Assembly: GCA_040756715.1 (NCBI GenBank)
Contig: JBFLYE010000212.1
Span: 1-18,327, forward strand
DNA from: JBFLYE01 sp040756715 [NCBI: bacterium]
GTDB taxonomy: Bacteria > UBA9089 > UBA9088
Direction: 5' to 3'
Length of the DNA stretch: 18,327 bases
The notes below the pieces were generated by a model. That model searched no databases, was not told where the DNA came from, and was given only the letters and a program-made list of their open reading frames with translations. Position 1 is the stretch's first letter. Each line of letters begins with the position of its first letter. Both the position numbers and the translations under genes were made by a program. Shown here piece by piece: positions 3,641-15,997 of the stretch.

Positions 3641-4257
3641 TGCTTGTTTATCCTGCTATTCTAACAGAAAAAAAAGAGGAATTGGGGAAGATGTTAAAGA
3701 TAGCAAGCGCTTTTTGTAAGAATGTTCATATAGATATTATGGATGGAATTTTTGTCCCTTCTAAAAGCATAGGCTATGATGACCTTATTGAAACAGACCT
3801 CTTTATGGAAATACACCTTATGGTTAGCTCTCCCATAGATTATATAGAAGGCTTTAAAAGAAAGGGTGCAAAGAGGATAATCTTTCATATTGAGGGGAAG
3901 GATTCTCCAGAGGAGGCAATAAAAAAAATAAAGGATGGAGGTTTAGAGGTAGGCATCTCGCTTAATCCCGAAACACCTATTTCCAAACTCAAGCCATTCC
4001 TTGATAATCTGGATCTTGTGCTTATTATGAGCGTTGTCCCTGGTTTTTATGGAAGCACATTTATACCCGATGTTCTTTCTAAAGCAAAAAAGCTCAAAAA
4101 AGAAAGATCAGACCTTTGTCTTGAGATGGATGGTGGCATAAAGCTTTCAAATATTTCCCTTTTAAAAGATGCAGGGATTGATATTGCCGCGGTTGGATCA
4201 GAGATATTCAAAGCATCAAACCCATCTTTTGTTTTTAATGAGCTTTCAAAGGTATGA
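3640..4257 (+). CDS. rpe: Ribulose-phosphate 3-epimerase-like protein
   Basis: This 205-residue TIM-barrel protein belongs to the D-ribulose-5-phosphate 3-epimerase family, which interconverts ribulose-5-P and xylulose-5-P in the pentose phosphate pathway. The metal and acid/base residues are all present: H30 and D32 in 'VHIDIMDG', H59 in 'EIHLMV' and D164 in 'EMDGGI'. Other canonical positions are altered. The N-terminal 'PSILSAD' reads 'PAILTEK', and the phosphate/substrate loop 'SVNPGFGGQ' reads 'SVVPGFYGS' (N to V at 133, G to Y at 137). The length is a little short for the family (~215-225). Substrate specificity may therefore differ from standard Rpe. It is translationally coupled on both sides (TAATG upstream, ATGA downstream into the TPR gene). 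Confidence 0.8.
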   Translation: MLVYPAILTEKKEELGKMLKIASAFCKNVHIDIMDGIFVPSKSIGYDDLIETDLFMEIHLMVSSPIDYIEGFKRKGAKRIIFHIEGKDSPEEAIKKIKDGGLEVGISLNPETPISKLKPFLDNLDLVLIMSVVPGFYGSTFIPDVLSKAKKLKKERSDLCLEMDGGIKLSNISLLKDAGIDIAAVGSEIFKASNPSFVFNELSKV

Positions 4258-6650
4258 AAAGAATTTGGGATTTGGGATTTAGGAATTTAGGACTTTTATT
4301 GTTCATCATTTCATTAAATATATTTGCCCAGAATCTCCCCTATGAATTTTACAAAAATGGGCTATTTAATCTTACTCAAGGTTATTTAAGGGATACACAA
4401 GAAGAGGATGGCCTTTTTCTTAAGGCAGAATCTTTATTCTTTCTATGTTCCTATAAAACGGCATATAAAAATTATTTAATCCTTAAAGAAATCTCCCTGG
4501 ATGAAGAAAGGCTTTCTACTGTATATTACAGGATTGCTGATTGCCTGTGGTTCATCGATAAAAAAGAAGAGGCAATTTCTTCCTATCAAGAAGCACTTTC
4601 AAGATACCCCAATAACCCATCATCCTCTTATGCCATCTTTAGAATTATCCAATATTATCTTGAAATAAAGGATTATGATCGGGCTGTTTCGCTATTTTCT
4701 TCATACCTTATAGATTATCCAAACCTTCCCTGGAAAGACAGCGTCTTTTATTCCATAGCAGTGTCATTTGAAGAAATCAAGGATTATAACAGGGTTATTT
4801 CCTATTACAAAAAGATTTTGGAAACATCAAAGGATGATCTCTTAAGAAGAAATTCCCTATCCTCCCTGGCAAGAATTTATTATGAGAATGGTGATTTTGA
4901 GAAATCCCTATTCTATGCAAACTGCCTGGTTAAATCATACCCATCAGATTCCTCCTTTATTCTTCTATTTTCTTGCCTTTTTAATATGAAAAGATTTGAA
5001 GATGCGGTTTCTGTTTTTCCAAAAATTTCATCTCCCACAAAGGAGCTTTATCTTGCACAAGCAGAAAGTTTATATAGCCTTGGGAGATTTAATGAGGCAG
5101 TGGATTTCTATAAAAAAGGAGGGGCAAAAACAGGCATTTCATTTTCTTATCTTAAGCTTTCTAAAATAGACCTTGCCTTAGAGGAGCTAAAGAAAATAGG
5201 CGATGATAGAAGCTTATATCTTATAGCCCAAATAGGAGAGGATAATGAAAAGATTAAGGCGTATGAGAAGATTATTGCAGATTACCCAAAAAGCAGCTTT
5301 AGGGAGGAGGCATTTTTAAGGCTCTCTCTTTTGTATCTTAAAATTGGAAGTATAACAGAATGCTTGGTAATGTGTGATGAAATGATAAAGGAATACCCAA
5401 AGACCCCCCTTTCCCTTACTTGCCTTTACAATGTAGGAATAAGCCTTGATAATGAAGAATACCTTTGGCGCATTGTTTCTCTATACCCAAATTTCTCAAA
5501 AAATCCCGAGATTCTTTACAAAATTGGTGATAATAGGATGAAAAAGGGACAATACAAAGAGGCAATAGATGCCTTTTCTTCTTTAATAGAAAAATACCCA
5601 AAGAGTGAATTGTTTGGCTATAGCCTCTACAATACGGCATTCCTTTATAATAAAATTGGGAATCCAAAGAAGGCAAGGCTGGTGTATAAAACCATTCCTG
5701 CCATTGATAAAGAATTAGGAGAAAGGGCATTGTTTTATTCAGCAAACATATCATTTAACCTCAAGGATTATGGCCTGGCAATTTCAGATTATCAAAGCCT
5801 TATAAAGCAATATCCAAAATCAAGCTTTGTTTCTGCCTCAATATACCAGATAGGGTGGTGCTATTATAAAAAGGAAAGGTTTGATGATGCCAGAAAATAT
5901 TTTACCAAGATAATCTTAAATTATAAAGAAAGCCCATATTTTTCTTGTTCTATTTATTGGCTTGCCTGGACTTACTTTGAGGAGGGAAGGTATGATGAGG
6001 CAATTGAGGCATATTTAAGGCTACAAAGGGAGTTTCCCGAGGATAGCCTATCAAAGGATGCCTATCTTAGAATAGGCTTGTGTTTTTATAATCAGGGTGA
6101 ATACAAAGAGGCAATTTCTTCCTATCAAAAGCTTGTTGAAAAAGGGGCTGATAAAGCCTTAATGGAGGAGGCATTGTATCAAATAGGAGAGGCATTTATA
6201 AAGGACAATAAACCAGGGGCTGCCATAAATTATTATAATCTTTTCCTTGAAAAAGGGCAGGAGAAAGAGATGGCTAAAAAGATAAGAAAAAGGATTGCCC
6301 AAATCTATTATTTAGAGGGAAAGAAAAAGGATTCTAGAGAGGAATATAAAAAGCTTCTCTCAGAAGACCTTACGGATGATGAAAAAGCTGATGCATATTA
6401 TTGGATAGGAAGGACATATTTACCCGATGCAAAGGAGGAGGCAATTGTTTATTTTAGAAAGGTAGCTGAGCTTTATCAAAGCTCAGAATGGGCAGCTGAT
6501 TCCCTCTTTAGAATAGGTGTTATCCTTTATTCCTCTGGCGATTATGAGGATGCATATTTTGAATTTAAAAGGCTAATAAAAAATTATCCTAAGAGGGATG
6601 ATTTGATAAAAGAGGCAAAGGCATATATTACGAAAATTGAGAAGAGATGA
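4254..6650 (+). CDS. Secreted tetratricopeptide-repeat protein
   Basis: This 798-residue protein has a signal peptide (hydrophobic core 'LLLFIISLNIFA', likely cut after Ala-25) followed by TPR helices over essentially its whole length. Well over a dozen units are visible, with repeated 'Y..G.Y.EAI..Y..L...YPKS' patterns like those of BamD/YbgF-type and 'Tol-Pal' TPR proteins. There is no C-terminal membrane anchor or enzymatic domain. It probably acts as a periplasmic or outer-membrane scaffold; its partners are unknown. The ATG overlaps the rpe stop by ATGA. Codons 5-13 are made of a 7-bp repeat (TTTGGGA/TTTAGGA), so the stretch between the MKR start and the hydrophobic core is unusually long and encoded by repeat DNA. 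The gene ends 51 bp from the convergent PorV-like gene; I see no clear terminator there. Confidence 0.88.
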   Translation: MKRIWDLGFRNLGLLLFIISLNIFAQNLPYEFYKNGLFNLTQGYLRDTQEEDGLFLKAESLFFLCSYKTAYKNYLILKEISLDEERLSTVYYRIADCLWFIDKKEEAISSYQEALSRYPNNPSSSYAIFRIIQYYLEIKDYDRAVSLFSSYLIDYPNLPWKDSVFYSIAVSFEEIKDYNRVISYYKKILETSKDDLLRRNSLSSLARIYYENGDFEKSLFYANCLVKSYPSDSSFILLFSCLFNMKRFEDAVSVFPKISSPTKELYLAQAESLYSLGRFNEAVDFYKKGGAKTGISFSYLKLSKIDLALEELKKIGDDRSLYLIAQIGEDNEKIKAYEKIIADYPKSSFREEAFLRLSLLYLKIGSITECLVMCDEMIKEYPKTPLSLTCLYNVGISLDNEEYLWRIVSLYPNFSKNPEILYKIGDNRMKKGQYKEAIDAFSSLIEKYPKSELFGYSLYNTAFLYNKIGNPKKARLVYKTIPAIDKELGERALFYSANISFNLKDYGLAISDYQSLIKQYPKSSFVSASIYQIGWCYYKKERFDDARKYFTKIILNYKESPYFSCSIYWLAWTYFEEGRYDEAIEAYLRLQREFPEDSLSKDAYLRIGLCFYNQGEYKEAISSYQKLVEKGADKALMEEALYQIGEAFIKDNKPGAAINYYNLFLEKGQEKEMAKKIRKRIAQIYYLEGKKKDSREEYKKLLSEDLTDDEKADAYYWIGRTYLPDAKEEAIVYFRKVAELYQSSEWAADSLFRIGVILYSSGDYEDAYFEFKRLIKNYPKRDDLIKEAKAYITKIEKR
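4264..4292 (+). repeat. Heptamer repeat in the TPR signal peptide
   Basis: Units are TTTGGGA (4264-4270), TTTGGGA (4271-4277), TTTAGGA (4278-4284), one extra A, then TTTAGGA (4286-4292). They encode IWDLGFRNLG directly after the codons MKR. The single-base offset between units three and four keeps the reading frame open into the hydrophobic core. Confidence 0.7.
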
Positions 6651-6701: not shown

Positions 6702-7658
6702 TTATTCTTCCTCTAAAAACTTTATATAGAATGAGCCTTGCATTGTGTTTCCAAGATCTTGAAAGGGAAGATAGGACATATCAAAGAAGTATTTTGAAAG
6801 CTTCAATCCCAAACCAAGTGAAATACCCGAACCAATATCGGCCTCTGTGGAATATCCTGCTCTAAGAAATACCTTATTCATCAATACATTTTCAAAGCCT
6901 AGCCTTAAAATTACATCAGAATCTATGGATTTATCAAGCTCTATTGTAGAAAGAAGGGTCTTATCAAGGCAATTTACAGAAATTCCTCCCTTCATGGTAA
7001 GGGGTAAATCCTCCTTTTTGTTTGTGTATTTTATTGATTTTCCGAGGTTTGAAAGGCAAAGACCAATTGTAATATCTTTTAAAAATGGTCTGTATTGAAT
7101 CCCAAGATCAGCTGCACCTGTATTTACAGCTTTATCATCTATGCTTTCCCTGATGAATTTAAATGTTCCTCCTATTGCAATATCAGGGCTTATGTTTCTT
7201 CCATATCCTATACTTGCTGAAATATCAGAGCAAGAGAATTTGCCATCTTCTATGCCTCCATCCTTTGTTTTTAAAATATCTGGGGTTTTGAGATAAAGGA
7301 GACTAAACCCAAAACAACCCATCTCCTCTGTGGGATGGAGGTAAGATAATGAAGAAATATCTATTCCCGCAAGGTATGAATTATAAGAAAGCCCAATTTC
7401 GGCTACCTTTGCACCTCCAAGGGATGCTGGGTTTTCAAAAGATGGTTCATTAACCCCCACAAATGCACCCCCTAAAGAGGAAACCCGGCAAGGCTTAATC
7501 TTTAAGAATTGCAAAGGGCTGGTCGCTGTATAATCTACCCCAAATGCAGAAGAGCCAATCGTCAAAAAACAGAAGAACACCAGAACACTAGAGCACCAGA
7601 TCAGCCTACTAGCACCCGAGCACCAGATGACTCCTGAGTCCTGACTTATTCTTTTCAT
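6702..7658 (-). CDS. PorV/PorQ-like outer-membrane barrel (T9SS type)
   Basis: This 318-residue outer-membrane beta-barrel begins, after its signal peptide, with 'TSPLQFLKIKPCRVSSLGGAFVGVNEPSFENPASLGG' features (about residues 46-82). That is the start typical of PorV/PorQ/UPF0164 proteins ('F..i..gaR..aMGgA.va..dd..a...NPAgL'). Alternating strands continue to a short C-terminus 'GSFYIKFLEEE'. In type IX secretion, PorV receives cargo at the outer membrane and passes it to the attachment complex. Here it overlaps by ATGA the gene of a large protein that ends in a T9SS-like sorting domain, which supports that role. The signal peptide is odd: after MKRI, nearly all of residues 5-31 is encoded by 7- and 8-bp tandem repeats, including the hydrophobic core 'LIWCSSVLVFFCF'. 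Confidence 0.8.
   Translation of the reverse strand: MKRISQDSGVIWCSGASRLIWCSSVLVFFCFLTIGSSAFGVDYTATSPLQFLKIKPCRVSSLGGAFVGVNEPSFENPASLGGAKVAEIGLSYNSYLAGIDISSLSYLHPTEEMGCFGFSLLYLKTPDILKTKDGGIEDGKFSCSDISASIGYGRNISPDIAIGGTFKFIRESIDDKAVNTGAADLGIQYRPFLKDITIGLCLSNLGKSIKYTNKKEDLPLTMKGGISVNCLDKTLLSTIELDKSIDSDVILRLGFENVLMNKVFLRAGYSTEADIGSGISLGLGLKLSKYFFDMSYLPFQDLGNTMQGSFYIKFLEEE
7568..7646 (-). repeat. 7/8-bp repeat tract forming the PorV-like signal peptide
   Basis: Read on the minus strand, after ATGAAAAGAATA come two 7-bp units (TCAGGAC, TCAGGAG). Next are two 8-bp units (CTGGTGCT 7626-7619, CGGGTGCT 7618-7611), an 11-bp break, and four more 8-bp units (CTGGTGCT, CTAGTGTT, CTGGTGTT, CTTCTGTT; 7599-7568). 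CTGGTGCT is the exact complement of the AGCACCAG unit inside ribD. The tract stays open in the coding frame. Confidence 0.75.
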
Positions 7659-10600
7659 CTTATAATCGCTAAAATCCCCTTTTGTTTATTATTGCCGCTT
7701 TCTGCAAGCCATATATAAATGCCAGATGCTACAGCTTTTCCATCCCTGTTTTTTGTGTCCCATATTGCTCCCTCAAGCTCTCTAACCAATTGGCCGGTTA
7801 AGGTGAATATTTTTATCTTTCCAGAAAATCCAGAAAATGTAATTAAATCTCCCTTGCAGGGGTTGGGATATGGAGATATTTTGGAATCAAGTGGAAATAG
7901 GGTATCAATCCTATAAATTCCAGTTTCTCTTATTTCGGTGCTGACTGTGTTGCTTGCTGTATCAACAGAGGATGCAAGGGGAGAATTTCCTTTGTAAATA
8001 ACAAATGCCTTTTCTATCTCCTGTGAAAATTCATTATTGTATGGAATGGTAAGTTTTGCAGAAAGGCTATCTATTAAAACATCGGGTCTATCTTTTCTCA
8101 CCGCGGTTATTCTCCTTCCTGTCTCAGAAAGCCCTGGAATAGATGAGGGAATTAAAATGTCCTCTACGGTAATCACCAATGGATATTCAATGCTTTTTAG
8201 AATAAGGGTTGTGGGTGAAAATGTAATGGGCAGGCCAATGCTTGTTGTTCCTACCTCCTTTGAGGAAAATCTGGAATTTTCAATTTTTATGGTTTTGGTT
8301 TGAAAGATACCAATGCCCCAGGAATCATAGGGTGTAAGCCTTATGGTTAAGGTTGTTTCTGTCTCTGGGAAATCAAGGCTTGAAGCCCAATAGAACTTGT
8401 AAATACCAGGGGTAAAGGATAAAGATCCATAGGTTGTTGCCTTTGTCCATGTTCCATTAAGGAGATAATCAAAGGAAAGGGATATTGTATCATAATCGGA
8501 ATCCTCAAGCTCAAAAGAGACCTCAATAAGACCAGAATTGGATGAAAGATTAAGGCTTTTTACAATTGGTTGCCTATTTAGATTATCCAATAAGAAGGAG
8601 AGAGAAGAAGCTGTGCCAGCTGCCTTGTCCTTTGGGGTTATTCTAAAATAAACCAGGGTTTTTGTTCCAGGAAGGTCAATATTAGAATTCCATATAAATT
8701 CCTGGTCAATGCCAAAAGAAGAGCCAATTAAATTTTCCTTTGTTCCACCTGAGGCAGAGCTATAATTTACCCCATCAAGTGAATACTCTGGAATAATTGA
8801 TAATGTATCACCGTCTATATCATATAGCTTATATTTTAGGGTAATTGTGGAAACGGCTGTAGTTATAGGAGATAGAACACAGGATGGAGGCGTGTTTGTT
8901 TCCTCCTTCAATAGATATAAATATACAGAGCCATTCCTGTTTCCTAAAACAAAATCCTTCTTTCCATCATTATCCCAATCAGAAATAAAACAAGAAGCAT
9001 TCCCAGAAACAGAGGGAGAAGAAAGAATCCTTCCGTAATCATATAGGGGTAATTGGTCGCTTCCATAATTCAAGAATAGCCATAGATTGCCGTTCCTATC
9101 GCCAACTATTAAATCTGCTTTTCCATTGTTATTATAATCAATAAATGCAGGGGTTGAATTATAAGAAACTTGTATCTCTGTATTTCCTGTTCCCAATAAA
9201 AGCTTTGTCCCTGTAGCAAATGATGGATTCATATCTGTGCCATAATTAAGGTATAGCCTAATGTAGCCATATTCATCACCCACAATCAAATCCTTCTTTC
9301 CATCAAGGTTGTAATCAATCACAATAGGTGATGCCATATTTCCAACATCTAAGTCACTTCCTCCTTGTATCCTTACACCCTTCTCTAGAATACCTTCAAT
9401 ATTTTTAAAATAATAAACATAGCCAAACCTATCTCCTACAAGCAAATCTTTACTTCCATCGTTGTCATAATCACAAACAAAAGGCAGAGAAAATCCTTCT
9501 ACCTTAAGGTCTTTCATTACTTGCGTTGATGTAGATTCCCTTGCTTGAAGCCTTGAATATGAGGTAAAAATAGGGTTTTGGTCTGTTCCAGAATTAAGGA
9601 ATAGATAGACATATCCAAATTCATCTCCAATTAAAAGGTCTTTCTTATAATCATTGTTCCAATCACAAACGCAGGGCGTAGAATATGCTCCTATATCAAT
9701 GTTTTTCCCTTGTATGGTAATAGGAATAAGGTTTGTCTTTGTTGTATTGTCAACCGAGAATGGGCTTGTTTTGTAAGATTGCCCTTGATTTGTTCCATCG
9801 CTTGGCGTTATCTGAAAGACAATATTATAGATTCCTTGTCCTAGATCAGCATAAGCATCCCAGACAAAGATATGGGATACACCAATAGGAGAAGAAGAAA
9901 GACCTATTTTCCCCTCTCCACCATCAGCCGATGTTGCATCAATCCAATTGGTATTATCCTTTGAAAATTTAACATCAATTAAGCAAGTGTCAGAATCATC
10001 ATCCCTTAAGGTATATGAGATGTTTATATTCCCAGATTGTGTTTGAAGGGGTGTATTTACCACAACAGATGGTGCTAGATTTAAAATGCTTGATAGGCAA
10101 ACAAATATTGTTCCATCCTTTCCACCAACTATAAGGTCAGATGAACCATTGTTATCCCAGTCAGAGATTGCAGGGCTTGAATTATCATTTGCCTTTATAT
10201 CATCGCCATTTGAAAACTTTATTCTTTCCTTTGTATTAAAGACAGGAATTTTATCACTTCCTGAGTTTATAAATAGATACATCTCCCCATAGCCTGTGCC
10301 AATTATTATGTCCTTCTTATAATCCCTATTGAAATCTATGATAGCTGGGCTTGTATCCTTTTCGTGGTCAAGGGGAATCTGCATTGTGGTAGGAGCTGCA
10401 AAAACAGGGTTTATATCAGAGCCTATATTTAAAAATAGCCTTATCTCTCCAGATTGACAACCTGCGATAATGTCCTTTTTCCCATCATTATCCCAATCAA
10501 GGATACAGGGCGTTGCATTATAGCCTAGTGTATATGATGTAGCATATGTTCCCTTTTGAAATATAGGGGCATCGTCTGTGTTTATATTTATGAATACATT

Positions 10601-11851
10601 TATATTCCCATATTTATCGCCGACAACAAGGTCTTTCTTTCCATCGTTATTCCAATCTATGGGATAAGGTGCGGAATTATACCCTACATCCAGGTCCTCG
10701 GTTTGCGTTCCCGATGTCATTGAGAAGAAAAATCCATCTGTAAAAATAGGATTATTGTCATTTCCAGAATTGAGGAAAAGCCTCACCTTTCCCAGGGAAT
10801 CACCGATTACTAAATCCTTCTTTCCATCATTGTTCCAGTCTATAACCTGGGGCTTTGAATATTCTCCAATATCTATAAATTCCGGGTCTCCGTCTATCTT
10901 TTGTATTGTATTGAATTCGGGTGGTTCAGAGGCTTGGTATTTTGTATTCAAAAAGAGGTATATTGTTCCATCGCCTGCTCCCACAAGCATATCATATCCA
11001 CCCTCATTATTCCAATTGCAGATAAATGGTGAGCCGTAGAATCCAACATCTATTTCTTTGTTTGCAACCTTTGCCCTTTCTTTAAAGATAAAGTTTGGAA
11101 TAAATGTTCCTGTCCCTGTTTGTGTTCCTGGGGTAAAGATATGGGTATTTCCAAATATATCACCAACAATCAGGTCTTTCTTTCCATCGTCATTCCAATC
11201 AATCATTACCGGCTTTGCATTCTGTGAGACATCAAGGGTGGCACTTCCTACCAATGTCTTTGTTCCCGCAGAAAGGATGGGAGAATCTGGCCTTCCAATA
11301 TTTCTAAAAAACCAGACATAGCCAGCCTCATCTCCCACCAAAAGGTCAAGTAAGCCATCCTCATCTACATCAAAGGCGTAGGGAGAGGCATTTGGTAGAT
11401 AGATTGATTTATTATCTGCCTTTAGCTTCTCAAGGACAGTATATGTGGGAGGCATTCCCTCGATTACCTCGTTCATAGCCTTTGCAAACCAAACATTTCC
11501 CCCTCCATCTCCAATTAGCAAATCCAAGTCCTTTGCATTGTCCCATTGGCAGACAATGGGTGAGCTATATCCTCCCTCCAGCTTGATTTCTCCTGTATCT
11601 ACAGTAATCCTTTTCCCATTTTCAAAGGATGGGTTGTAATCCGTCCCAATATTTTTATAAAATAAAATGTATCCCTCCTTATTTCCCAGTATCAAATCTT
11701 TCTTGTTGTCGTGGTCAAAATCAATAACATATATAGAGGCATTCTCACCTACATCCAAAACCTCTTTGGTTATATATTGCTTTCCCAGAAATACCAAAGA
11801 TGAGCAGAATCCTAGATTAAAGAAAAAAAGGAAAAACAAAAATTTTTTCAT
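7655..11851 (-). CDS. Large secreted FG-GAP/VCBS repeat protein with T9SS-like sorting domain
   Basis: This 1398-residue extracellular protein has a signal peptide, 'MKKFLFFLFFFNLGFCSS'. I count 15 FG-GAP/VCBS blades, ten before residue ~595 and five at ~725-980. Each has a calcium loop of the form D-W-N-N-D-G-K-K-D followed by 'LIVGDxxGxVxLFLN'. Three Ig/fibronectin-like segments ('DDDSDT', 'YDIDGDT', 'LEDSDYDT' starts) lie at ~600-700 and ~990-1185. The last ~73 residues, from 'SPYPNP' through 'IKIFTLTGQLVREL' and 'DGKAVASGIYIW' to 'GILAIIR', match the type A T9SS C-terminal sorting domain (FlgD-Ig-like). FG-GAP propellers usually bind ligands or surfaces, so a surface adhesin or matrix role is likely; no enzyme domain is seen. 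I chose the ATG at 11851 over the GTG one codon upstream. The stop overlaps the PorV-like gene by ATGA. Confidence 0.87.
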   Translation of the reverse strand: MKKFLFFLFFFNLGFCSSLVFLGKQYITKEVLDVGENASIYVIDFDHDNKKDLILGNKEGYILFYKNIGTDYNPSFENGKRITVDTGEIKLEGGYSSPIVCQWDNAKDLDLLIGDGGGNVWFAKAMNEVIEGMPPTYTVLEKLKADNKSIYLPNASPYAFDVDEDGLLDLLVGDEAGYVWFFRNIGRPDSPILSAGTKTLVGSATLDVSQNAKPVMIDWNDDGKKDLIVGDIFGNTHIFTPGTQTGTGTFIPNFIFKERAKVANKEIDVGFYGSPFICNWNNEGGYDMLVGAGDGTIYLFLNTKYQASEPPEFNTIQKIDGDPEFIDIGEYSKPQVIDWNNDGKKDLVIGDSLGKVRLFLNSGNDNNPIFTDGFFFSMTSGTQTEDLDVGYNSAPYPIDWNNDGKKDLVVGDKYGNINVFININTDDAPIFQKGTYATSYTLGYNATPCILDWDNDGKKDIIAGCQSGEIRLFLNIGSDINPVFAAPTTMQIPLDHEKDTSPAIIDFNRDYKKDIIIGTGYGEMYLFINSGSDKIPVFNTKERIKFSNGDDIKANDNSSPAISDWDNNGSSDLIVGGKDGTIFVCLSSILNLAPSVVVNTPLQTQSGNINISYTLRDDDSDTCLIDVKFSKDNTNWIDATSADGGEGKIGLSSSPIGVSHIFVWDAYADLGQGIYNIVFQITPSDGTNQGQSYKTSPFSVDNTTKTNLIPITIQGKNIDIGAYSTPCVCDWNNDYKKDLLIGDEFGYVYLFLNSGTDQNPIFTSYSRLQARESTSTQVMKDLKVEGFSLPFVCDYDNDGSKDLLVGDRFGYVYYFKNIEGILEKGVRIQGGSDLDVGNMASPIVIDYNLDGKKDLIVGDEYGYIRLYLNYGTDMNPSFATGTKLLLGTGNTEIQVSYNSTPAFIDYNNNGKADLIVGDRNGNLWLFLNYGSDQLPLYDYGRILSSPSVSGNASCFISDWDNDGKKDFVLGNRNGSVYLYLLKEETNTPPSCVLSPITTAVSTITLKYKLYDIDGDTLSIIPEYSLDGVNYSSASGGTKENLIGSSFGIDQEFIWNSNIDLPGTKTLVYFRITPKDKAAGTASSLSFLLDNLNRQPIVKSLNLSSNSGLIEVSFELEDSDYDTISLSFDYLLNGTWTKATTYGSLSFTPGIYKFYWASSLDFPETETTLTIRLTPYDSWGIGIFQTKTIKIENSRFSSKEVGTTSIGLPITFSPTTLILKSIEYPLVITVEDILIPSSIPGLSETGRRITAVRKDRPDVLIDSLSAKLTIPYNNEFSQEIEKAFVIYKGNSPLASSVDTASNTVSTEIRETGIYRIDTLFPLDSKISPYPNPCKGDLITFSGFSGKIKIFTLTGQLVRELEGAIWDTKNRDGKAVASGIYIWLAESGNNKQKGILAIIR

Positions 11852-11895
11852 CACCTAATATATCGGTATTTTTATTGAAATGCTTAAGAAAAATT

Positions 11896-14941: not shown

Positions 14942-15997
14942 ATGGATGACATCTTTTTAAAGAGGGCTTTTTTGCTTGCCAAGAGGGGATTGGGAAAAAC
15001 AAGCCCAAATCCTATGGTAGGATGTGTCATTGTAAAGAAAGGAAGGATAATAGGTGAGGGCTATCATAAAAAGGCAGGCTTTCCGCATGCAGAGATTATC
15101 GCATTAAAAAAGGCAGGGAAAAATGCAAGAGAAGCAACATTGTATGTTAACCTTGAGCCCTGCTCACACTATGGAAGGACACCACCCTGCACAGATGCAA
15201 TAATTAAGGCAGGAATAAAAAGGGTTGTTGCATCAACCCTTGATCCAAACCCAATTGTAAAGGGAAAGGAAATATTGGAAAAAGGGGGAATAAAGGTTGA
15301 TATTGGGCTATTAAAGGATGAGGGAGAGCATCTTAATGAGGTCTATTTTAAGTATATAAAAACAGGGATGCCATTTGTTATGCTTAAAGTAGGAATGAGC
15401 CTGGATGGGAAAATTACAATAGAGCACCAGGGCACCAGGGCACCAGAGCACCAGAATAGGTGGATAACAAGTGAGGCGTCAAGGAGGATGGTTCATCGAT
15501 TAAGGTCTTATGTGGATGGGATTATGGTGGGAAAGGGAACAATTATTAAGGATAACCCCTATCTTACCACAAGGCTTGTCAAAGGAAAATCGCCGATGAG
15601 AATAATTGTCACAACAGATGGAAAGATTCCAGCAGAGGCAAATGTATTTGGGAAAAAGGAAGAGCTAATCATTGCAAGCACAAAGCAACCTCCTTCTGAG
15701 ATTGCAAAAAAGGCAGAGGTGCTCATTGTAAAAGAGGAAAATGGCTTGGTTTCTCTTCCTGACCTTCTTTTAAAGCTTGGCAAAATGGGCATTACCTCCA
15801 TCCTTCTTGAGGGAGGACAAAGGCTAGTAACATCATTTTTGAATAGATGCCTTATAGATAAGGCAATATTCTTTATCTCTTTGAAGCTCATTGGCGATTC
15901 TGGTCTTTCCCTTTTGGGAAATATTTCTCCTCTTAAGCTTAAAAACATAAAGACAAAGCGGATTTCAGATGATATTATGTTAGAGGGATATTTGTGA
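14942..15997 (+). CDS. ribD: Bifunctional riboflavin biosynthesis deaminase/reductase RibD
   Basis: This 351-residue cytoplasmic enzyme performs two steps of riboflavin synthesis. The N-terminal deaminase acts on diaminohydroxy-phosphoribosylamino-pyrimidine and the C-terminal reductase reduces the ribose of the product. Zinc-site residues H49 and E51 ('PHAEIIAL'), C74 ('[12 protein letters not shown]') and C83 are intact. The reductase half starts near residue 145 with '[14 protein letters not shown]' and keeps '[15 protein letters not shown]', '[16 protein letters not shown]' and '[13 protein letters not shown]'. Between DGKI and WIT there are about 15 residues where the family usually has about 8. 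The extra segment (E161-Q171) is encoded by four tandem 8-bp repeats. The gene is the first of an operon; the next ATG lies 10 nt past its stop. No other rib genes are in the window. Confidence 0.94.
15423..15454 (+). repeat. Four tandem 8-bp repeats inside ribD
   Basis: Units are AGCACCAG (15423-15430), GGCACCAG (15431-15438), GGCACCAG (15439-15446) and AGCACCAG (15447-15454). They encode [11 protein letters not shown] in a surface-loop position of the reductase domain. The unit is the complement of the CTGGTGCT unit in the PorV-like signal peptide. Four units of 8 bp are not a multiple of three, so flanking bases must have adjusted to keep the frame. Confidence 0.85.

What the first reader, a model, noticed from the sequence alone, without database searches (positions are those of the whole stretch)
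7568..7658. Signal peptide of the PorV-like protein is built from tandem 7- and 8-bp repeats
Directly after ATGAAAAGAAT, almost all of the signal peptide (residues 5-31) is encoded by TCAGGAC/TCAGGAG heptamers and CTGGTGCT-type octamers. The hydrophobic core itself comes from the octamers. Repeat DNA seems to have been captured as working export signal. Short tandemly repeated heptamers are known in heterocystous cyanobacteria, but mostly between genes.
Basis: partly seen in the sequence, partly recalled or inferred. Interest (0 to 1): 0.75.

Follow-up and report, generated by a model that had tools for sequence, protein, structure and literature searches.

The report
Dispersed DNA repeats inside signal peptides
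In an uncultured bacterium, short repeated DNA that is scattered through the genome has apparently landed in-frame just after a gene's start codon and now encodes much of the predicted export signal of a surface protein, a case of repeat DNA becoming a protein part.

Summary
Codons 5-28 (perhaps 31) of the PorV-like gene are mostly two TCAGGA[C/G] heptamers, an 11-mer and four or five CTGGTGCT-type octamers. They are copies of dispersed families: 25 heptamer-pair, 29 octamer-pair and 15 octamer/11-mer-junction matches, often overlapping, in this 1.55 Mb genome. The same-genus and same-family orthologues have short ordinary N-termini at the same start, supporting insertion after the start codon.

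It is not unique. By eye, 23 of 32 repeat sites lie in genes, 11 near the start. Of 118 PorV-family genes from 19 genomes, 10 have 7/8-bp arrays in the first 120 nt, 13 upstream, against 1 of 580 internal segments. Stop-free 7- or 8-bp units read as one peptide in every frame: CTGGTGCT gives hydrophobic LVLWCSGA, its complement hydrophilic STRAPEHQ. In genes of two species the hydrophobic strand occurred only in presumed signal cores (4 of 4), the hydrophilic strand only elsewhere (13 of 13 groups). Export was not tested. Best reading: dispersed repeats captured at permissive sites and filtered by selection, a new variant of known in-frame repeat capture.

The parts
6702..7658 (-). PorV/PorQ-family protein gene, 318 aa, ATG start
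   Evidence: ORF; NF033709 PorV_fam 148 bits, cut-off 90; PorQ and PorV equivalog cut-offs not reached
7631..7644 (-). two TCAGGAC/TCAGGAG heptamers, codons 5-10
   Evidence: family of 25 genome matches
7611..7626 (-). two octamers CTGGTGCT, CGGGTGCT, codons 11-16
   Evidence: match
7600..7610 (-). 11-mer AGTAGGCTGAT, part of the dispersed GGTGCTAGTAGGCTGC junction
   Evidence: 15 genome matches
7568..7599 (-). octamers CTGGTGCT, CTAGTGTT, CTGGTGTT and degenerate CTTCTGTT, codons 20-31
7539..7658 (-). presumed signal peptide, residues 1-40, cleavage inferred after SSAFG
   Evidence: inference from alignment with G001 and G002 and hydropathy; not tested
7655..7658 (-). ATGA overlap of the porV start with the stop of the upstream gene, also in G001, G002, G004
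7655..11854 (-). upstream FG-GAP repeat protein; weak C-terminal PorZ-like match (29 bits, cut-off 260)
   Evidence: next to porV in G001-G004 too
15421..15455 (+). octamer array read in the hydrophilic direction (AGAGCACC) inside ribD; G002 RibD lacks 9 residues here
4261..4288 (+). ATTTGGG heptamers just after the ATG of the TPR gene 4254-6650 (start of its presumed signal peptide)
   Evidence: G001 and G002 orthologues start differently

Best explanation
Short repeat families (7-, 8- and 11-bp units) disperse through this genome and its relatives by an unknown route. A copy landed directly after the start codon of the porV gene. Because a stop-free unit whose length is not a multiple of three is open in whatever frame it is entered and gives the same cyclic peptide, only the total insert length must keep the frame. 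Protein starts, including signal peptides, and ends, domain linkers and loops tolerate such inserts, so they accumulate there, while selection removes them elsewhere. Selection also sorts the strand: CTGGTGCT read forward gives LVLWCSGA, which can serve in a signal-peptide core, and its complement gives STRAPEHQ, which suits hydrophilic stretches. In porV the insert supplies a long front part and about the first third of the most hydrophobic stretch of a signal peptide that is probably still functional. Shown: array, genome-wide families, absence in the two closest orthologues, position bias in the PorV survey, strand pattern. Inferred: direction of change, tolerance and selection, continued export. 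Unknown: how the repeats move.
For: Array and coordinates. Genome-wide families. Short N-termini in G001 and G002 with the same ATGA start. 16 repeat-bearing segments (15 of the 23 in-gene sites plus the TPR gene) searched in two relatives: of 14 found in G001, 3 carry the same kind of repeat at the place (LeuC, ThrC, ProB) and 11 do not; of 12 found in G002 (one, C59, only as a distant paralogue), none does. Clear short forms: RibD in G002 (-9 aa), MobA in G001 (-12), UvrD in G001 (-9) and G002 (-5), TsaE in G002 (-14), C172 in G001 (MRQ-VILIILF). Other presumed signal peptides with octamer cores: C98 and C59 in G000, C40 in G001. Same place, different repeat: GrpE N-terminus (G000 heptamer, G001 octamer) and a YfhO-like loop in two G001 genes. 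PorV survey: 10 of 118 first segments against 1 of 580 internal ones, Fisher P 1.3e-7; with only 7 counted, 2.3e-5. Strand pattern 4 of 4 against 0 of 13 groups, P 4e-4.
Against: Gene starts, signal peptides and coding status at repeat sites were judged by eye. Signal peptides evolve fast, so replacement of the old signal rather than clean insertion cannot be excluded; the non-repeat remainder does not align well with G001. In G001 the SMC, C106, C188 and TsaE places hold other residues of similar length, so those are not clean empty sites. The start bias is not special to 7/8-bp units: periods 6 and 9 show it as well (12 of 118 first segments, 6 of 118 upstream, 1 of 580 internal). Upstream segments carry 7/8-bp arrays as often as the first 120 nt (13 versus 10 of 118), so some may sit before the true start. 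Four forward cases are few, and two forward sites that I placed outside genes or left unclear (C53 and its G001 counterpart C4; C207) would count against the strand rule if they are coding. No expression or export data.
Confidence: 0.8

Rival explanations
1. The array is a phase-variation switch, as in Neisseria opa genes: slippage by one unit shifts the frame and turns the protein off.
For: Repeats of non-triplet length lie in the presumed signal-peptide region of a PorV-family gene; the Opa precedent, CTCTT coding repeats in the leader region, was read in passages of PMC3960869.
Against: No two neighbouring units in this array are identical, so slippage should be slow. The same families sit inside housekeeping genes such as ribD, SMC and grpE, and the ThrC-, ProB- and LeuC-like arrays are kept in frame in two species.
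Confidence: 0.06
2. Translation starts downstream of the array and the repeats are leader DNA that merely happens to be open.
For: Arrays are as common in the 120 nt upstream as in the first 120 nt of PorV-family genes, and stop-free units extend ORFs mechanically.
Against: The ATGA overlap with the upstream gene is present in four genomes, two of them (G001, G002) with short ordinary N-termini. The later in-frame GTG (codon 27) or TTG (codon 32) would lack the positive n-region and part of the core (sequence).
Confidence: 0.05
3. The array is an assembly or binning artefact of the MAG.
For: The genome is in 218 contigs and repeats can break or collapse assemblies.
Against: The array lies inside an 18 kb contig, in frame, with conserved flanks; relatives carry related arrays, some at the same places.
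Confidence: 0.03
4. The repeats arose on the spot by slippage from an older signal peptide and are unrelated to the other copies.
For: Tandem repeats can arise by slippage, and start regions of PorV-family genes carry arrays of several periods.
Against: The octamer/11-mer junction has 15 matches in this genome, 3 in G001, one 2-mismatch match in G004 that is not an array, and none in G002, G003 or G009, which fits copying, not local slippage. Heptamers and octamers from two genome-wide families lie side by side here.
Confidence: 0.06

Closest known systems
Rickettsia palindromic elements (RPE)
   Same: Dispersed repeats inserted in frame into unrelated protein genes (passages of PMC10969869).
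   Different: RPEs are about 150 bp and palindromic; here direct arrays of 7-, 8- and 11-bp units, mostly well under 100 bp. Capture as a signal-peptide core is not mentioned in the passages read.
Neisseria opa CTCTT coding repeats
   Same: Non-triplet tandem repeats in the leader-peptide region of opacity-protein genes (passages of PMC3960869).
   Different: Opa repeats vary in number and switch expression; here units are degenerate and belong to families spread over the genome.
Heptamer repeats of Nostoc and Xanthomonas; cyanobacterial STRR
   Same: Short heptamers scattered through a genome.
   Different: In Xanthomonas 89-93% are intergenic; Nostoc has more inside genes (passages of PMC4692102). 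Here 23 of 32 sites were judged to be in genes. The name STRR is recalled and was not found in that paper.
Tandem repeats of archaeal Borg elements
   Same: Tandem repeats inside genes that create new protein stretches, with repeat proteins enriched in signal peptides (passages of PMC9879509).
   Different: Borg units inside ORFs are of lengths divisible by three; here they are 7, 8 and 11 bp and lie in contigs binned as a bacterial genome.

Membership tests
PorV/PorQ family (NF033709) | Whole-protein score above the curated cut-off | tested here: met
   148 bits against 90
T9SS PorV (NF033710) and PorQ (NF033711) equivalogs | Whole-protein score above the curated cut-off | tested here: not met
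   65 bits against 250 and 117.5 against 220
Rickettsia palindromic elements | In-frame presence of a dispersed repeat in unrelated genes | tested here: met
Rickettsia palindromic elements | About 150 bp palindromic unit | tested here: not met
   In-gene copies looked at are direct arrays, from 14 bp to about 140 bp in one G001 gene
Opa-type phase-variable repeat | Non-triplet repeats in the leader-peptide region | tested here: met
   that the region is a leader peptide is inferred
Opa-type phase-variable repeat | Runs of identical units prone to slippage | tested here: not met
   no identical neighbours in this array
Opa-type phase-variable repeat | Copy number varies within a population | not testable with these tools
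   no reads or sister strains held
Xanthomonas-type heptamer repeats | Dispersed heptamers, mainly between genes | tested here: not met
   Dispersed yes, but 12 of 14 heptamer sites were judged in genes

The most novel reading that the evidence does not exclude
Stop-free repeats of 7 or 8 bp act as frame-independent peptide cassettes: wherever they land they add the same peptide, and one strand of the octamer is a ready-made signal-peptide core. In this lineage export signals are repeatedly remade from such repeats, with different repeats captured at the same gene start in sister species.
Probability: 0.4. Interest if true: 0.75.

Novelty: new variant of a known kind. Interest (0 to 1): 0.62.

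Why it matters
It gives a concrete, countable route by which dispersed repeats become protein parts, with with-and-without states in related species. Frame neutrality explains how non-triplet repeats can live in genes, where in Borg elements the repeats in genes are triplet multiples. The strand pattern makes selection on repeat capture directly testable, and the lineage offers a natural set of repeat-derived signal peptides for export assays.

Tried and rejected
A scan of genome contigs with the window protein found no relative; a scan with an alignment gave four records, UBA9088, Yes70-25, DeMMO4_10 and a distant Chloroflexi-titled MAG, but no phylum name could be established. Contig lengths of the first three equal those of G002:C30, G003:C144 and G004:C57, so these are probably the same records (inference).

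Considered and rejected: phase variation, downstream start, assembly artefact, local slippage (see rivals). A third pattern, TTTGGRA triples, gave 5 matches at 3 places with 1 control match and was not used for counts. In one search the rows for L030, L033 and L037 were printed on the wrong strand; the window gene is taken and the other two.

Rows handled by judgement. G000: 19 octamer/junction sites and 14 heptamer sites, porV shared, make 32. I judged 23 in genes, 7 outside (C49, C95, C53, C188 octamer pair, C183, C161, C186) and 2 unclear (C190, C207). G001: all 11 octamer sites were looked at (C42 and C4 outside genes; C169 chance-like; the others in genes); of its 49 heptamer matches 12 sites were looked at, the rest not, and none was used for counts. 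A 2-mismatch junction match at G001:C138 is not an array. For the strand count, LeuC of both genomes and the three TMEM260-like G001 genes (C92, C130, C158; Pfam run on the first two only) were each counted once; unclear sites, outside sites and C169 were left out.

PorV survey: 120 genes taken from the capped list (genomes G000-G018), not all listed matches; 118 usable. The start was set by script as the first ATG within 60 codons before the match. Of the 10 first-segment hits, L182 has a doubtful start, L033 is at the threshold, and L090/L205 and L035/L037 look like orthologous pairs.

Names: GrpE, SMC, TsaE, MobA-like, UvrD, YfhO (C33 only), TMEM260-like and M6 peptidase come from Pfam, RibD, TPR and FG-GAP; LeuC (Aconitase family), ThrC (PALP), ProB (AA_kinase) and EngA are my reading of those families. 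The second YfhO-like gene (C7) gave no Pfam match; it is called so from the similar stretch around GWKAYI. The proteins C59, C98, C172 and C40 gave no Pfam match.

Papers: searches were read as search listings (one search found none); passages were read from PMC3960869, PMC4692102, PMC10969869, PMC9879509 and PMC4585086 (in the last only a reference entry). None of the titles and abstract starts listed reports dispersed heptamers or octamers forming signal-peptide cores; these lists were cut and the library lacks most subscription papers.

Full report
What is there. The PorV-like gene (window 6702-7658, minus strand) belongs to the PorV/PorQ family (148 bits, cut-off 90) but reaches neither the PorV (65 of 250) nor the PorQ (117.5 of 220) equivalog cut-off. 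Right after ATGAAAAGAATAAG come TCAGGAC, TCAGGAG, TCAT, CTGGTGCT, CGGGTGCT, AGTAGGCTGAT, CTGGTGCT, CTAGTGTT, CTGGTGTT and a doubtful CTTCTGTT. Matches to the two units cover 54 of 91 nt; none of 5000 dinucleotide shuffles reached that, while tandem self-similarity was reached by 8 of 5000. The units were read off the same sequence, so genome-wide recurrence is the better test.

Genome-wide recurrence. The window is contig 212 of a 1.55 Mb, 218-contig, 96% complete genome, G000. Octamer pairs give 29 matches (reversed-pattern control 0), heptamer pairs 25 (control 1) and the octamer/11-mer junction 15 (control 0). Among 18 relatives searched for octamer pairs, 14 have a match; G009 has 136, G001 26 and G003 17, the other fifteen 0 to 8 with controls up to 4, and G002 none. 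The junction has 3 matches in G001, one with 2 mismatches in G004 that is not an array, and none in G002, G003 or G009.

With and without. The G001 orthologue (same genus) begins MRKIIISLVFGGFLWG, that of G002 (same family) MKKSIIIFLVFCGIVFG, followed by VDYTAT and EDYTAT. The window's N-terminus up to that point is 24 residues longer than that of G001. The start ATG overlaps the stop of the upstream FG-GAP gene in the window, G001, G002 and G004; G003 has a similar AAGATGA there, whose upstream frame I did not check. G003 and G004, more distant, have longer N-termini of other sequence.

Other genes in the same genome. I listed 32 distinct octamer/junction and heptamer sites (19 + 14, porV shared) and judged by eye 23 in genes, 7 outside and 2 unclear. 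Eleven of the 23 begin within about 30 codons of the start; with 10% expected this has P 4e-6, with 15% 2e-4 (the expectations are my assumption). Other sites lie inside RibD, an aconitase-family gene (LeuC-like), SMC, a MobA-like gene and UvrD. Joined segments of 16 such genes, 15 of the 23 plus the window's TPR gene, were searched in G001 and G002. Of 14 found in G001, 3 carry the same kind of repeat (LeuC-, ThrC- and ProB-like) and 11 do not, four of these with other residues of similar length; of 12 found in G002, none does, C59 being matched only by a distant paralogue.

Same place, different repeat. GrpE starts MAEMSQESGVRGQESKERIQ in G000 (heptamers) and MAEISAPEHQNSLLAPEKETI in G001 (octamers reversed). 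Two YfhO-like genes of G001 have octamers or heptamers in the same loop after GWKAYI. The orthologue of a G000 M6-peptidase-like gene with heptamers at its N-terminus has in G001 a TTTGTGCC octamer array in the N-terminal core, although that G001 gene shows an in-frame TAG further on.

PorV-family starts in 19 genomes. 120 genes were taken from the capped hit list by homology, not by repeats; 118 were usable. 7/8-bp arrays (score 9 or more) occur in 10 of 118 first 120-nt segments, 13 of 118 upstream segments, 1 of 580 internal segments and 1 of 20 downstream segments; codon-shuffled first segments gave 0 of 118. Fisher P for first against internal is 1.3e-7, or 2.3e-5 if only 7 hits are counted. 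Periods 6 and 9 behave alike: 12, 6 and 1 of the same totals, so the start bias is a matter of tolerance and not of frame neutrality as such. The start region carries about as many arrays as the DNA before it, and the gene body almost none.

Why non-triplet units can work. A tandem unit whose length is not a multiple of three passes through all three frames, so every frame gives the same cyclic peptide. CTGGTGCT gives LVLWCSGA (best 11-residue hydropathy 2.35), its complement STRAPEHQ (-1.75), TCAGGAG gives SGVRSQE (-0.98), and the complement of TCAGGAG contains a stop. In genes of G000 and G001 the forward octamer occurs at 4 sites, all in presumed signal-peptide cores (porV, C59, C98, G001 C40), and the reverse octamer in 13 groups of genes, none in such a core; P 4e-4. 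In the TMEM260-like membrane proteins of G001 it is also the hydrophilic strand that is read. Selection after insertion is the simplest cause (inference). Sites left out as outside genes or unclear could change this count (see Tried and rejected).

How far the insert matters in porV. The best 11-residue stretch is residues 25-35 (2.75, against 2.66 in G001). Without residues 5-24 it is unchanged; without 5-28 it falls to 1.82. So the octamers lengthen the front and supply the first part of the core, and the rest is not recognisable repeat.

Comparison with the known. It works like Rickettsia palindromic elements (passages of PMC10969869) but the unit differs; it looks like Opa leader repeats (passages of PMC3960869) but lacks identical units; it differs from Xanthomonas heptamers in lying mainly in genes (passages of PMC4692102) and from Borg repeats in unit length (passages of PMC9879509). 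The listings of searches showed no report of dispersed 7/8-mers forming signal-peptide cores; they cover only openly licensed papers.

Verdict. Export has not been shown, the route of dispersal is unknown, and gene-start calls were made by eye.

Noticed in passing
window 15421-15455: Octamer array in the hydrophilic direction inside ribD ([11 protein letters not shown]), within its RibD_C domain stretch; absent from G002 RibD.
   Followed up: yes
window 4261-4288: ATTTGGG heptamers encode IWDLGF just after the ATG of the TPR-repeat gene, in its presumed signal peptide.
   Followed up: partly
L091 5398-5464 (G000:C188), L251, L256, L264, L267: Outside genes, octamers occur at these places as inverted pairs around an A/T-rich core, a possible hairpin form of the element.
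   Followed up: no
L090 1027-1077 (G000:C205) and L205 (G001:C3): A PorV paralogue has TCAGGAG repeats in its presumed signal peptide in both species; the G000 copy has a TAA inside the match.
   Followed up: partly
L238 (G001:C38): N-terminal core encoded by a TTTGTGCC octamer array in the orthologue of a G000 gene whose N-terminus has heptamers; in-frame TAG downstream.
   Followed up: partly
L035, L037 (G016, G017) and L049 (G008): Other heptamers (GGAAATT, and CAATTAT-like units) form the front of presumed PorV-family signal peptides in other families of the phylum.
   Followed up: partly
G009: 136 octamer-pair matches, more than in any of the other 17 relatives searched.
   Followed up: no
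L337, L341 (G001:C41): A long ORF with a stretch of about 140 bp of TCAGGAG-type units, the longest in-gene array seen.
   Followed up: no
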